Part shown: positions 27,204 to 30,846 of the stretch, in pieces
Layout: each line of letters begins with the position of its first letter
How positions within the stretch are numbered: the stretch's first letter is position 1
Source of the DNA: Saprospiraceae bacterium
GTDB lineage: Bacteria > Bacteroidota > Bacteroidia > Chitinophagales > Saprospiraceae
Assembly (NCBI GenBank): GCA_026985735.1
Contig: JALSPW010000159.1
Span: 1-39,959 of the forward strand
DNA length: 39,959 nucleotides
Direction: 5' to 3'
Position numbers and translations under genes: made by a program
Notes under the pieces: model-generated
Seen by the model: only the letters and a program-made list of their open reading frames with translations
Database searches by the model: none
Told to the model about the DNA's origin: nothing

Positions 27204-28070
27204 TTAACTCAACTTCACAATATTAAGCTTCATACCGCTTAAAATTCTTTTTATTTCATTAGATCTGCATATCATATTATACATTTTTCCGGAATCACCT
27301 GAATCAAGAGCATCTTTAAATTCAGTCAGAAAACCGATATATTGATCAAGAGAATCACTAATGTTATTTTTATTATTTTCAAATATCGGCACCCATGTGT
27401 CTGCCGAACTCTTGGCAAGTCTTACCGTCGATTCAAATCCGGTACTGGCAAGATTAAAAATCTGCTTTTCATCTTTTTCTATTTCCAGTACCGTCTGCCC
27501 AAGCATAAAAGAACTGATATGTGACAAATGAGAAACATAAGCCATGTGTTTATCATGATCTTCCGGATTCATAAACATAGAAGTCATACCCAATTGATTA
27601 AAAATATCAACAGCTGTCATTAGAGCGTCTTCATCACTTTTATTCTCTTCACAAATTATATTGTATTTACCTCTAAACAATCCGGATAAAGCGGCATTGG
27701 GGCCGGAATATTCTGTTCCAGCCAGAGGGTGTGCTGCTACAAATCTATTTCGATTGGGATGATTTGCCACCACCTTGCATATATTTGTCTTTATCGAACC
27801 TACGTCAATCACCGTGGTATTGCTTTTGATACTGTCCAATACCATTGGTAATAATCCGATTATAGCATCTACGGGAATTGATAAAATTATCACATCGGAC
27901 TTTAGAATAGCCTCAGACAAATCCGATTGTTCATCTATCAAACCAAGCTGAAGAGATTGTTCTATATGATTAGGATTTTTATCTACTCCTATAATATAAT
28001 TTCCTGCATCTTTAAGATCCAACGCCATAGAACCTCCAATAAGTCCCGGACCCAAAATAGTAATATTCAT
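27204..28070 (-). CDS. tyrA: prephenate dehydrogenase
   Basis: A 288-residue enzyme that oxidises and decarboxylates prephenate to 4-hydroxyphenylpyruvate in tyrosine synthesis. The N-terminal NAD-binding motif GPGLIGG is at residues 7-13, the family's 'AAHPLAGTEYSGP' lies in the middle, and 'MAYVSHLSHISSFML' supplies the conserved substrate-site histidines. No chorismate mutase or ACT domain is attached, so feedback control must come from elsewhere. It is the last gene of the pheA-aminotransferase-tyrA unit, after an 81-base gap. Confidence 0.93.
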   Translation of the reverse strand: MNITILGPGLIGGSMALDLKDAGNYIIGVDKNPNHIEQSLQLGLIDEQSDLSEAILKSDVIILSIPVDAIIGLLPMVLDSIKSNTTVIDVGSIKTNICKVVANHPNRNRFVAAHPLAGTEYSGPNAALSGLFRGKYNIICEENKSDEDALMTAVDIFNQLGMTSMFMNPEDHDKHMAYVSHLSHISSFMLGQTVLEIEKDEKQIFNLASTGFESTVRLAKSSADTWVPIFENNKNNISDSLDQYIGFLTEFKDALDSGDSGKMYNMICRSNEIKRILSGMKLNIVKLS

Positions 28071-28151: not shown

Positions 28152-29312
28152 TTAAGAATTGACACTATGTATTATTTTTCTCAATGCTTTATCCAGTTTT
28201 TCCAAACTATTTGTTAATGAAACTCTTATATATCCCTTTCCGTTTTCACCAAAAACCCTTCCGGGAGTTATAAACACATGAGCTTTTTGCAATATATCTT
28301 CAACAAATTCTTCTTCATCTTTCAATCCTGTTTTGCCCCATACAAACATGCCGGTGCTATCCGGTGAATAATCACACCCGAGAACATCCATTATTTCCCA
28401 AACTTTCCTTCTGCGTTTTTCATACATTTTATTGAGTTTATCAAACCAATCTTCATTTAGATTAAGGGCTGTTACCCCTGCTTCCTGTATAGATTTAAAC
28501 ATTCCGGAATCCATATTACTTTTGAATTTAAGAATTTCATTAATGTAATTATCATTTCCTGCTATCGCACCTATCCGCCAACCTGCCATATTATAAGACT
28601 TGCTCAAAGAAACAAGCTCCAAGGCTACTTTCTTGGCATCGGAAATTTGCAATATGCTTATAGGATTATCATTAAGGATAAAATTGTACGGATTATCATT
28701 TACAAGTAAAATGTTATTTTTTATTGCAAAATTTATAAGTTTTTCAAATACCTGCCATGAAGCATTCGCACCTGTCGGCATGTGTGGATAATTCAACCAC
28801 ATAATTTTAACAGAACTTAAATCCTTTTTTTCAAGAGACTCAATATTTGGCAACCAATTATTGCTTTCGTTTAAATCATACCTCAGCACTTCTGCTCCGG
28901 CCAGCTTGGATGCAGCCGTATATGCAGGATATCCGGGATCAGGAACCAAAACTTTGTCTCCCTCATTTAAAAAAGCCATCGCAATATGCATAATGCCTTC
29001 CTTAGATCCCATTAGAATTTGGATTTCTTTTGCCGGATTTATATCAACATCAAAATATTTTTTATACCATTTTGAAAAAGAGTTTCTTAATTCTTCAATT
29101 CCTCGATAGGATTGATAACCGTGATTTACAGGTTTTTTTGCCGATCTGATCAAAGAATTGACAACATCAACATGAGGTTCGAGATCAGGACTTCCGACTC
29201 CGATATTTAAAATATCAAAACCTTTTTTGTTCATTTCTGCAATTTGTGCCATTTTGCCTGCAAAGTAATATTGCTTTATTTTTTGTATTCTGTTTGACGG
29301 TTTTATTATCAT
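28152..29312 (-). CDS. class I/II aminotransferase, probably aromatic
   Basis: A 386-residue PLP enzyme. The Schiff-base lysine is Lys238 in SLSKSYNMAGWR, the Asn/Pro of 'LVNDNPYNF' and the Tyr of 'VPDPGYPAY' are the usual cofactor contacts, and the C terminus has 'GYIRVSLTNS' with the substrate-carboxylate Arg. By fold it groups with LL-diaminopimelate/aspartate-type aminotransferases. Its position between pheA and tyrA, with a four-base overlap with pheA, indicates that it converts phenylpyruvate and 4-hydroxyphenylpyruvate to Phe and Tyr. The substrate assignment rests on context. Confidence 0.88.
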   Translation of the reverse strand: MIIKPSNRIQKIKQYYFAGKMAQIAEMNKKGFDILNIGVGSPDLEPHVDVVNSLIRSAKKPVNHGYQSYRGIEELRNSFSKWYKKYFDVDINPAKEIQILMGSKEGIMHIAMAFLNEGDKVLVPDPGYPAYTAASKLAGAEVLRYDLNESNNWLPNIESLEKKDLSSVKIMWLNYPHMPTGANASWQVFEKLINFAIKNNILLVNDNPYNFILNDNPISILQISDAKKVALELVSLSKSYNMAGWRIGAIAGNDNYINEILKFKSNMDSGMFKSIQEAGVTALNLNEDWFDKLNKMYEKRRRKVWEIMDVLGCDYSPDSTGMFVWGKTGLKDEEEFVEDILQKAHVFITPGRVFGENGKGYIRVSLTNSLEKLDKALRKIIHSVNS

Positions 29313-30151
29313 AATAAAAATTTATGTTTTTTATAAACACCCAATTCTTCCGTTTGATTGGTTATCTCTTTAAGTTTGGATATAAGTTTTTTATACTGCC
29401 TTACTGTTTCAAATTCAAGGTCTATATGAAAATAATATTCATTAAATGACCCTAAAACAGGATATGACTGGAGTTTACTCATATTGACATCGCAACTGTA
29501 TATATGTTCCAACACTTTTAATAAACTACCTTTTTCATGGTTTACTTTTACATAGATGGATGCTTTGTTTTCATCTCCTTTTATATCCGGGATTATACCG
29601 TTTTTCTTTATAATAAAAAATCTTGTATAATTGACGTCCGAAGTTTCTATATCTGCTGCCAATATCTGTAATCCATAGATTTTTGCAGCAGTCTTGCTAG
29701 CAACGGCAGCAATATTTTTTAGTTTGTTATCCGCTATATTTTTAGCACTTAAAGCCGTATCATCAGCTTCTACCAATCTAACATTTTTCATTTTTTTGAG
29801 AAACTTTATACTTTGGTTCAAAGCCATCGGATGTGATACCACCTCTTTTATGTCTTCAATTTTTTGTCCGGGCAACGCCATAAGGTTATGCCTGATTCTC
29901 AGATATTGTTCACCGATTATTCTAAATTGATTTTCTCTAATAAGCCTGTAATTTTGAAGTAAACTTCCGGCAATTGAATTTTCTATCGCCATAATTGCAT
30001 AATCAATATTCTTATCCTCGCACAGCTTGTCTGCTTGAATTTCAAAAGTCATCGCAGGGATAATATCTATTTTTTCATTCCTGAAATATTCCCTCGCAGC
30101 TTCTTCGTGAAAAGCTCCGGAAAATCCTTGTATTATTATATTTTTACTCAT
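29309..30151 (-). CDS. pheA: prephenate dehydratase with ACT domain
   Basis: A 280-residue enzyme converting prephenate to phenylpyruvate. It opens with GFSGAFHEEAAREYF (the GxxGxxSxxA-type start, here with His), shows 'AIENSIAGSL' in the first lobe and the catalytic TRF motif as NYTRFFII. An ACT domain covers about 195-270, with 'VNHEKGSLLKVLEHI'; the Phe-binding ESRP element of many family members is replaced by LQSYP, so feedback inhibition may be altered. No chorismate mutase domain is fused. It is first in the operon and is preceded by an aromatic-rich leader ORF and terminator, described separately. Confidence 0.93.
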   Translation of the reverse strand: MSKNIIIQGFSGAFHEEAAREYFRNEKIDIIPAMTFEIQADKLCEDKNIDYAIMAIENSIAGSLLQNYRLIRENQFRIIGEQYLRIRHNLMALPGQKIEDIKEVVSHPMALNQSIKFLKKMKNVRLVEADDTALSAKNIADNKLKNIAAVASKTAAKIYGLQILAADIETSDVNYTRFFIIKKNGIIPDIKGDENKASIYVKVNHEKGSLLKVLEHIYSCDVNMSKLQSYPVLGSFNEYYFHIDLEFETVRQYKKLISKLKEITNQTEELGVYKKHKFLL

Positions 30152-30167
30152 TGTTACAAATCAGTTG

Positions 30168-30204
30168 AAAAAAAAAGTCCTCAAAAAAATATTTGAGGAC
30201 TTTT
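30168..30204 (-). terminator. attenuator terminator in the pheA leader
   Basis: On the minus strand the stem AGTCCTCAAA pairs perfectly with TTTGAGGACT (30192-30201 with 30176-30185), flanked by extra A-U pairs and followed by nine U (30168-30176). It ends about 17 bases before the pheA start and is preceded by a Phe/Tyr-rich leader ORF, so it can only work as a conditional terminator of the operon it precedes. Confidence 0.85.
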
Positions 30205-30242
30205 GTTATACCGGTTTATTATTAGAATCACATAACACAAAG
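30200..30242 (-). promoter_or_regulatory. candidate anti-terminator hairpin in the pheA leader
   Basis: On the minus strand CTTTGTGTTAT (30242-30232) pairs with ATAACAAAAG (30209-30200) over ten pairs with one bulged G. The 5' arm overlaps the end of the leader ORF and the 3' arm shares five bases with the base of the terminator stem, so the two structures compete only partly. A ribosome stalled at upstream aromatic codons would leave the 5' arm free. Confidence 0.45.
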
Positions 30243-30308
30243 CCCCCTTTTATTCCAGTAAATGAAATAAAAAGAGAAGTTATAATGATTAAAATAATTA
30301 TTTTTCAT
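30228..30308 (-). CDS. aromatic-rich leader peptide of the pheA operon
   Basis: A 26-residue frame (ATG at 30308, TGA at 30228) with Phe at 6, 11, 13 and 15, Tyr at 5, 9, 14 and 17 and Trp at 18: nine aromatic codons in a 14-codon stretch. It ends 24 bases before the terminator stem and sits in front of the Phe/Tyr synthesis genes. This is the arrangement of pheL-type leader peptides, whose translation senses charged tRNA-Phe (and here apparently tRNA-Tyr). AT-rich DNA favours Phe and Tyr codons, which weakens the composition argument, but the position before a perfect terminator supports it. Confidence 0.75.
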   Translation of the reverse strand: MKNNYFNHYNFSFYFIYWNKRGLCVM

Positions 30309-30324
30309 ATAAATTTTTTACAAA

Positions 30325-30332
30325 CAAAAGTA
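30325..30332 (-). promoter_or_regulatory. candidate -7 box of the pheA leader transcript
   Basis: On the minus strand this is TACTTTTG, matching TAnnTTTG, 16 bases before the leader ATG. A TTTG lies 15 bases further upstream, closer than the usual spacing. Transcription from here would start just before the leader peptide. Confidence 0.35.
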
Positions 30333-30363: not shown

Positions 30364-30846
30364 TTATCCCAATATCAATAATACTTGATTTTTGGAAACC
30401 GCATCACCTTGTTTAACTTTTATCGATATTATTTTACCATTTACATGAGCTTTAATAAGGTTTTCCATTTTCATAGCTTCCAATACCAACAAAGTATCTC
30501 CTTTTTTTATTTCCTGTCCCTCTTCAACATCTATATGTAGTACCATTCCGGGCATTGGAGATTTTATTTCTCCGGTACTTTGTTTTTTATTATTAGAAAA
30601 ACCCATTTGATCCAACATTTGATCAAGAGAATCCTTAATGTCAAGGTCAAATTCCTTACCATCAACAGAAACTATATATTTTTTATTATTAATATCCGAT
30701 TTAAGTATGGAAAGGTTATAAGATTTATTTTCGTAAATCAAATTATAGCTACCATCTTTATTTTTTATAATATCAAGATCATCTATATCTGATTTATTTA
30801 CTTCAAATACTATATCATCATTTGTTTTAACAATAAAATCGGCCAT
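30364..30846 (-). CDS. biotin carboxyl carrier protein
   Basis: A 160-residue carrier subunit. The C-terminal 70 residues are a biotinyl domain with the target lysine Lys126 in VLEAMKMEN, preceded by 'KSPMPGMVLHIDVEEGQEI'. A separate N-terminal region (1-75) is beta-rich and a charged linker joins the two. Such stand-alone carriers serve acyl-CoA carboxylases (acetyl- or propionyl-CoA) or sodium-pumping decarboxylases. The PMPGMV motif fits the propionyl/methylmalonyl type, but the partner subunits are not in the window. It lies four bases after the AtpI-like gene in an unusual neighbourhood. Confidence 0.85.
   Translation of the reverse strand: MADFIVKTNDDIVFEVNKSDIDDLDIIKNKDGSYNLIYENKSYNLSILKSDINNKKYIVSVDGKEFDLDIKDSLDQMLDQMGFSNNKKQSTGEIKSPMPGMVLHIDVEEGQEIKKGDTLLVLEAMKMENLIKAHVNGKIISIKVKQGDAVSKNQVLLILG

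What the first reader, a model, noticed from the sequence alone, without database searches (positions are those of the whole stretch)
30168..30308. Phe/Tyr-sensing leader peptide and attenuator in front of pheA
Seen: a 26-codon frame with four Phe, four Tyr and one Trp codons within 14 codons, then a partly overlapping hairpin (30200-30242), then a terminator with a perfect 10-bp stem and nine U, ending 17 bases before pheA of a pheA-aminotransferase-tyrA unit. Known: pheL-type attenuation couples stalling at Phe codons to read-through in proteobacteria. Inference: the same logic operates here with both Phe and Tyr as signals, which would suit an operon making both. The candidate anti-terminator shares only five bases with the terminator stem, so the switching geometry is not settled.
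Basis: partly seen in the sequence, partly recalled or inferred. Interest (0 to 1): 0.62.

Follow-up and report, generated by a model that had tools for sequence, protein, structure and literature searches.

The report
Phe/Tyr-sensing pheA attenuator in Saprospiraceae
In front of the phenylalanine and tyrosine synthesis genes of this bacterium lies a short leader peptide full of Phe and Tyr codons plus switchable RNA hairpins, which very probably lets transcription through only when those amino acids run short; the same switch is found in most relatives examined in its family and is often doubled there.

Summary
By strict criteria 60 of 67 family pheA upstreams carry an aromatic leader plus terminator, as do 12 of 26 order-level and 14 of 26 class-level ones; shuffles gave 0 of 201. 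Over 115 modules each antiterminator pairs far better with its own terminator arm than with swapped ones (-12.6 against -8.5 kcal/mol, permutation sd 0.2). Unexpectedly, 26 of 67 family loci have two complete attenuators in series; the window has one.
Kind: ribosome-mediated attenuation, hinted at for pheA in Flavobacterium. The window's element is a new, lineage-specific member; the tandem form in relatives is the less expected part. Nothing was tested at the bench.

The parts
30325..30332 (-). TACTTTTG, match to the Bacteroidota -7 promoter box TAnnTTTG (consensus recalled), ending 16 nt before the leader ATG; no TTG at the usual 17-23 nt spacing upstream (nearest is at 15, read by eye)
   Evidence: in 56 of 88 first/only modules such a box lies within 80 nt upstream of the leader start, 5.2 expected by shuffle
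30228..30308 (-). leader peptide ORF, 26 codons + UGA, MKNNYFNHYNFSFYFIYWNKRGLCVM; control codons Phe/Tyr (and one Trp)
   Evidence: an aromatic-rich leader with terminator stands in 60 of 67 family pheA loci
30243..30277 (-). protector hairpin 1:2, 15 bp, loop 5; region 1 lies in the aromatic codons themselves
30195..30247 (-). antiterminator 2:3, 16 bp with one bulged base: 30247-30239 + 30237-30231 with 30210-30195; -15.5 kcal/mol for the folded stretch 30262-30186 (which holds a further 5-bp helix)
   Evidence: own-versus-swapped test over 115 modules
30168..30204 (-). intrinsic terminator 3:4, 13-bp stem 30204-30173 (loop 30191-30186) and T run to 30168; -17.0 kcal/mol
29309..30151 (-). 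pheA, prephenate dehydratase
   Evidence: PF00800 1.7e-53
28152..29312 (-). class I/II aminotransferase, overlaps pheA by 4 bases
   Evidence: PF00155 2.4e-58
27204..28070 (-). tyrA, prephenate dehydrogenase
   Evidence: PF02153 2.1e-35

Best explanation
It is a ribosome-mediated transcription attenuator of the pheA-aminotransferase-tyrA operon. RNA polymerase starts just upstream of 30308 and a ribosome follows on the leader ORF. If Phe-tRNA and Tyr-tRNA are charged, the ribosome runs to the stop codon, covers region 2 (30247-30231), and the terminator 30204-30173 forms before pheA. If Phe or Tyr is short, the ribosome stalls on the run F11-Y17, masks region 1 and leaves region 2 free; region 2 takes the terminator's 5' arm into the 16-bp antiterminator before the 3' arm is made, and the operon is transcribed. 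Shown in silico: the parts, the mutually exclusive helices, their conservation and their matched pairing. Inferred: translation of the ORF, stalling, the start point, and kinetic trapping (at equilibrium the finished terminator is slightly more stable than the antiterminator).
For: Parts present. Fold far better than shuffles. 60 of 67 family, 2 of 2 further family, 12 of 26 order-level and 14 of 26 class-level pheA upstreams have the same architecture, against 0 of 201 shuffles and 5 of 67 reverse strands; the reverse-strand control of the second set gave 1 of 54. Region 2 pairs with its own region 3 at -12.64 kcal/mol on average against -8.51 (sd 0.20, best of 10,000 permutations -9.26), and region 1 with region 2 at -12.24 against -9.19 (sd 0.22); the first test holds in each of the five subsets tried. 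114 of 115 leaders have at least two Phe and two Tyr codons. The distance from the last aromatic codon to region 2 is tight (median 15 nt, sd 3.5), close to a ribosome's downstream reach (recalled), while the distances to stop and start codons vary more (sd 9.5 and 13.3); part of the tightness is built in, because region 2 was sought only from the last aromatic codon on. In a footprint model 110 of 115 modules expose the antiterminator for a stall at an aromatic codon, but only 9 of 115 with the ribosome at the stop codon. In eight family genomes 4 of 4 hisG, 8 of 17 chorismate-binding (trpE-like and relatives) and 4 of 9 ilvD-type loci scanned carry His-, Trp- or Ile/Val-rich leaders with terminators, including a Trp leader in the window's own genome.
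Against: No RNA or expression data for this organism. In the window the -33 element is not at consensus spacing. With the terminator complete, MFE favours the terminator for each of the 14 positions tried, so read-through must be kinetic. In 73 of 115 modules the naked RNA, folded without region 4, already shows the antiterminator, so the protector is not dominant everywhere (in the window it is). The model calls the early non-aromatic codons of many leaders, the window's included, effective too. L115 keeps a terminator without an aromatic run. L019, L034 and L045 in the family have no convincing leader and no terminator, and 14 of the 26 order- and class-level misses show neither leader nor terminator in a looser scan.
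Confidence: 0.92

Rival explanations
1. The hairpin is simply the terminator of the upstream biotin/lipoyl-carrier gene (30846-30364, same strand), and the aromatic frame is a by-product of AT-rich DNA.
For: The upstream gene is on the same strand and ends about 160 bases before the hairpin; the region is AT-rich. In 48 of 88 module-bearing loci the longest upstream frame is on the same strand.
Against: In 37 of 88 module-bearing loci the longest upstream frame is on the opposite strand and 3 have none (raw stop-to-stop frames of 80 codons or more), yet the module is there. AT-rich shuffles do not make it (0 of 201). The clusters are 877 Phe/Tyr of 1157 residues, with only 38 Lys, Asn and Ile together. 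The antiterminator co-varies with the terminator.
Confidence: 0.03
2. The leader acts on translation of pheA or by Rho, not by an intrinsic terminator switch.
For: The terminator ends 16 bases before pheA in the window, and over 88 loci the first possible pheA start codon lies a median 19 bases after the last hairpin, so a hairpin there could also hide the start region. Bacteroidia ribosomes do not use Shine-Dalgarno pairing (start of the abstract of PMC9976891 in a search listing), so other ways to gate initiation are plausible.
Against: Stem and T run are those of an intrinsic terminator (the detector demands a T-rich tail) and recur across the family. In tandem loci the first hairpin stands over 100 bases from pheA, where it cannot hide the pheA start, yet keeps its own antiterminator.
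Confidence: 0.04
3. The signal is mainly one amino acid (Phe, or Trp as well), not Phe and Tyr jointly.
For: Phe is the commonest residue (519 of 1157 in clusters) and the enterobacterial pheA leader senses Phe (recalled); the window's leader has W18 at the end of the run.
Against: 114 of 115 leaders have at least two Phe and two Tyr; Trp is in only 32 of 115; the operon makes both Phe and Tyr.
Confidence: 0.2

Closest known systems
Enterobacterial pheA attenuator (pheL; Rfam RF01859 Phe_leader)
   Same: Short aromatic-codon leader, alternative hairpins, terminator before pheA (pheL details recalled).
   Different: No model relationship (19 bits against a cut-off of 55); here Tyr codons are as regular as Phe, pheA is a dehydratase without a chorismate mutase hit in an operon with tyrA, and the phylum does without Shine-Dalgarno pairing (PMC9976891, abstract start in listing).
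5' elements upstream of pheA and hisG in Flavobacterium psychrophilum / Flavobacteriaceae (PMC9723704)
   Same: Same phylum, same gene, proposed leader-peptide attenuation before amino-acid operons, pheA and hisG elements without Rfam match (section 19 read).
   Different: The section read gives no leader sequence, no antiterminator and no tandem form; supplements were not available. Relationship to the Saprospiraceae element was not tested on that genome.
E. coli trp / his / ilvGMEDA leaders
   Same: Classic 1:2, 2:3, 3:4 switching; leaders with several amino acids are known for multi-product operons (recalled).
   Different: Lineage-specific sequence; in many relatives duplicated in series.
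Salmonella mgtCBR tandem attenuators (PMC3641672)
   Same: Two leader ORFs in one 5' leader (passages read).
   Different: mgtCBR's two attenuators sense different signals (ATP, proline) and its stem-loops do not resemble intrinsic terminators; the Saprospiraceae pairs are two full copies with two intrinsic terminators and the same Phe/Tyr codons.

Membership tests
Ribosome-mediated (leader peptide) transcription attenuator | Short ORF with clustered codons for the operon's product | tested here: met
Ribosome-mediated (leader peptide) transcription attenuator | Intrinsic terminator between leader and first structural gene | tested here: met
Ribosome-mediated (leader peptide) transcription attenuator | Antiterminator exclusive with the terminator, and a protector exclusive with the antiterminator | tested here: met
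   predicted in the window; own-versus-swapped pairing over 115 modules; the protector does not dominate in the naked RNA of 73 of 115 modules
Ribosome-mediated (leader peptide) transcription attenuator | Geometry: stall at control codons frees region 2, ribosome at stop covers it | tested here: met
   110 of 115 modules expose the antiterminator at an aromatic codon, 9 of 115 with the ribosome at stop, in a footprint model; early codons also score as effective, so specificity at the 5' side is not shown
Ribosome-mediated (leader peptide) transcription attenuator | Leader ORF is translated and read-through rises when the amino acid is limiting | not testable with these tools
   needs ribosome profiling and expression data
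Rfam RF01859 Phe_leader | Score at or above the gathering cut-off (55 bits) | tested here: not met
   19 bits, E 0.88
Rfam RF00514 His_leader | Score at or above the gathering cut-off (49 bits) | tested here: not met
   17.9 bits
T-box / riboswitch | Rfam match at gathering cut-off in the leader | tested here: not met
   one match in the whole window, a tRNA; none in the seven pheA loci given

The most novel reading that the evidence does not exclude
In one large branch of the Saprospiraceae the pheA operon carries two complete, same-signal ribosome-mediated attenuators in series behind a single promoter. Each copy has its own Phe/Tyr leader, its own co-varying antiterminator and its own terminator, so read-through probabilities multiply and the response to Phe/Tyr shortage becomes steeper and less leaky than one attenuator can give. 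This sits in a lineage whose His, Trp and Ile/Val genes use single leaders of the same kind and whose ribosomes do without Shine-Dalgarno pairing.
Probability: 0.75. Interest if true: 0.65.

Novelty: new member of a known kind. Interest (0 to 1): 0.5.

Why it matters
Leader-peptide attenuation needs a ribosome that keeps close behind RNA polymerase. Finding it with matched pairing before pheA, and leaders of the same kind before His, Trp and Ile/Val genes, in a Bacteroidota family is sequence evidence that such coupling works in a phylum whose ribosomes do not use Shine-Dalgarno pairing. The tandem form offers natural single- and double-attenuator operons for asking what a second identical attenuator in series buys. 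No Rfam 15 family matched the leaders tested (the window and nine loci), so such elements are likely to go unannotated.

Tried and rejected
Rejected: T-box, riboswitch or Rfam leader family. Rejected: division of labour between the two tandem leaders (one for Phe, one for Tyr): both have similar Phe and Tyr shares (0.247/0.151 and 0.222/0.168). Rejected: a second promoter in front of the downstream module (box before 23 of 27 first modules of tandem pairs and 1 of 27 second ones; 1.3 expected for the second). Rejected: cross-pairing between the two modules of a pair as the rule (own pairs average -12.19 and -12.53, cross pairs -9.16 and -9.70 kcal/mol; own pair of the first module beats both crosses in 18 of 27 loci, so not in 9).

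Led nowhere: the named-genome scan found two relatives. The chorismate mutase gene of this genome lies elsewhere (C193) and has no aromatic module in the 1500 bases upstream of its match. Literature searches: searches returned nothing; 21 (30 of 50 listed), 22 (1), 28 (10 of 52,842 listed), 46 (3), 57 (20 of 826 listed), 58 (1) and 61 (2) gave the papers cited here and little else. A 2010 survey by Lopatovskaya and others, cited in PMC4833913 (passages), is not held, so prior mention there cannot be excluded.

Rows dropped: of 69 family genomes with a pheA match, the window's own included, G039 and G005 were left out because the match was partial, leaving 67 (L068 has only 71 bases upstream and was kept as a miss). 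Of 27 order-level matches outside the family, G120 was left out for lack of upstream sequence. G118 appeared in both the order and class samples and was counted once, under order. Of 18 chorismate-binding loci L142 was left out of the trp scan; one search's control used 28 of the 31 hisG/trpE-like/ilvD loci (L142, L150 and L152 left out). Of the 33 strict misses nine were inspected: L054, L055, L079, L111, L113, L114 and L118 do hold an aromatic leader and a hairpin, L044 weakly, L115 not; so the counts are lower bounds. One tandem pair (L063) has overlapping coordinates because the detector chose too early an ATG. The first run of the scan read minus-strand loci in the wrong orientation; it was redone.

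Full report
What is in the sequence. The feature lies on the minus strand. A 26-codon frame (30308-30228) reads MKNNYFNHYNFSFYFIYWNKRGLCVM, with four Phe, four Tyr and one Trp codons among codons 5-18. A 13-pair terminator hairpin (30204-30173) with a T run to 30168 follows, and pheA starts at 30151. Pfam confirms prephenate dehydratase, a class I/II aminotransferase overlapping it by four bases, and prephenate dehydrogenase. The region folds 4.66 sd better than its dinucleotide shuffles. A TAnnTTTG box (Bacteroidota -7 element, consensus recalled) ends 16 bases before the leader ATG, though no TTG stands at the usual spacing. The same-genus genome G077 corresponds by contig number and length to a named Saprospiraceae MAG (JALSPK010000063.1), so I take the family to be Saprospiraceae.

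The switch. Three helices compete. The protector pairs 30277-30263, inside the aromatic codons, with 30257-30243. The antiterminator pairs 30247-30231 with 30210-30195 in 16 base pairs, taking up ten of the thirteen bases of the terminator's 5' arm. The terminator pairs 30204-30192 with 30185-30173. With the RNA free from the leader ATG on (or from a start point assumed 9 bases before it) and region 4 not yet made, the protector forms; with the RNA freed only from 30262 or 30256 on, the antiterminator forms (-15.5 kcal/mol); with region 4 present the terminator wins at each of 14 positions tried. So read-through must rest on the antiterminator forming first. In a simple model with 13 bases covered downstream of the A-site codon's first base, stalls at codons 1 to 18 (W18) leave the antiterminator as the predicted fold and those from codon 19 on do not.

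Conservation. A protein search found pheA in 69 of 100 family genomes, the window's included; 67 were used. With fixed criteria (at least 6 Phe/Tyr/Trp codons in 13, a start codon, a terminator 15-130 bases on) 60 of 67 have at least one module. Controls: 0 of 201 mononucleotide shuffles, 5 of 67 reverse strands, and 3 of 28 upstreams of hisG, trpE-like and ilvD matches, two of these three being Trp leaders. Outside the family 12 of 26 order-level and 14 of 26 class-level pheA upstreams have a module, and 2 of 2 additional family ones. These are lower bounds: of nine strict misses inspected, seven show leader and hairpin, one weakly, and one (L115) a terminator without an aromatic run. Absences that stand are L019, L034 and L045 in the family, and 14 of the 26 order- and class-level misses show neither leader nor terminator in a looser scan.

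Co-variation. For all 115 modules I computed the duplex energy of region 2 with its own terminator arm and with the arms of all others: own mean -12.64, permuted -8.51 (sd 0.20, best of 10,000 -9.26). Region 1 with region 2: -12.24 against -9.19 (sd 0.22). The first result holds for family members alone, for members outside the family, for single modules and for each member of tandem pairs. For the window itself the own region 2:3 duplex is -12.8, and 17% of swapped partners do as well. The last aromatic codon lies a near-constant 15 bases (median, sd 3.5) from region 2, while start and stop codons vary more; part of that tightness is built in, since region 2 was sought only from the last aromatic codon on. 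In 98 of the 111 modules with any effective codon, the last effective codon lies from one before to three after the last aromatic codon. Against: 73 of 115 naked leaders are predicted to form the antiterminator even without a ribosome, so the protector is not decisive everywhere. The rows are related genomes, so permutation spread is a guide, not a strict probability.

Tandem attenuators. In 26 of the 67 family loci, and one order-level locus, two complete modules stand in series. The downstream leader's ATG comes 4-49 bases after the first terminator hairpin, leaving aside L063 where the detector misplaced the start. The promoter-like box stands before 23 of 27 first modules of such pairs and before 1 of 27 second modules, which argues for one transcript with two decision points; over all first or only modules it is 56 of 88, 5.2 expected. 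Both copies carry Phe and Tyr codons in similar shares, and each set keeps its own antiterminators, though in 9 of 27 loci a cross pairing is as good as or better than the first module's own. On a PheA tree of 30 family members the form is clustered: 13 of 16 in one group (support 100/99), 1 of 14 in the group that holds the window; the label needs five changes, against a shuffled mean of 10.2, none of 500 shuffles as low; many inner forks are weak. Inference: two gates in series multiply.

Other operons. In eight family genomes, all four hisG genes found carry a His-rich leader with terminator; 8 of 17 chorismate-binding loci scanned have a Trp-rich one, one of them in the window's genome (C305, MIKNTRYWWLLLYSMTG); 4 of 9 ilvD-type loci have an Ile/Val-rich one. 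No pair of same-type modules was seen; L147 lists a second, overlapping frame on the same terminator and L151 a second frame without the Ile/Val run. Leader-peptide attenuation thus seems common in this family.

Known or new. Ribosome-mediated attenuation is textbook (recalled). A 2010 survey stated that, to its authors' knowledge, leader-peptide systems had not been shown outside Proteobacteria and Actinobacteria before its own Firmicutes case (PMC2965389, passages). A 2021 Flavobacterium psychrophilum transcriptome reports strong clues for leader-peptide attenuation before amino-acid operons, and conserved elements upstream of pheA and hisG without Rfam match (PMC9723704, section 19 read). 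A Bacteroides thetaiotaomicron map mentions short ORFs in long 5' UTRs reminiscent of leader peptides (PMC7366714, passages). So the phylum-level idea is in print in brief form. I saw no description of the Phe/Tyr leader, its antiterminator or tandem copies in the listings, which cover open-licence PMC papers only and, for 21, 28 and 57, only the top of a longer list. The tandem precedent found, Salmonella mgtCBR, senses two different signals and lacks intrinsic terminators (PMC3641672, passages). The Rfam Phe_leader model does not match (19 bits against 55).

Verdict. The finding is real and correctly read. The window's element is a single, lineage-specific member of a known kind; its family context, above all the tandem form, is what raises interest.

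Noticed in passing
L009, L013, L015, L017, L018, L020, L022-L028, L030 and others (26 of 67 family pheA loci): Two complete Phe/Tyr leader-terminator modules in series upstream of pheA, with a promoter-like box mostly only before the first.
   Followed up: yes
L145 768-821 (window genome, contig C305): Trp-rich leader MIKNTRYWWLLLYSMTG with terminator upstream of a chorismate-binding (trpE-like) frame, with a TATATTTG box upstream: the same genome has a probable trp attenuator.
   Followed up: partly
L124-L127 and L128-L134: His-rich leaders (four to six His in a row or nearly so) before hisG and WW/WWW leaders before trpE-type genes in family genomes, each with a strong terminator.
   Followed up: partly
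G000 (window genome): No hisG and no ilvD match in the window's genome or its genus-mate G077 (completeness 94 and 96%), suggesting His and branched-chain auxotrophy while Phe/Tyr and trpE-like genes are kept.
   Followed up: no
window 30364-30846: Biotin/lipoyl carrier protein gene directly upstream on the same strand; 55 bases separate it from the leader ATG, and the promoter-like box lies in that gap.
   Followed up: no
many family leaders, e.g. L026, L027, L030: Leader peptides often end in Phe-Phe-Tyr-Gly-X-Pro-stop: in L027 the Gly-Ser-Pro-stop codons form the top of the protector hairpin, so the recurrent peptide end may reflect RNA structure, not peptide function.
   Followed up: partly
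L118 (class level): Two aromatic-rich frames upstream of pheA with a hairpin missed by the strict detector before pheA: a possible tandem form outside the order.
   Followed up: no
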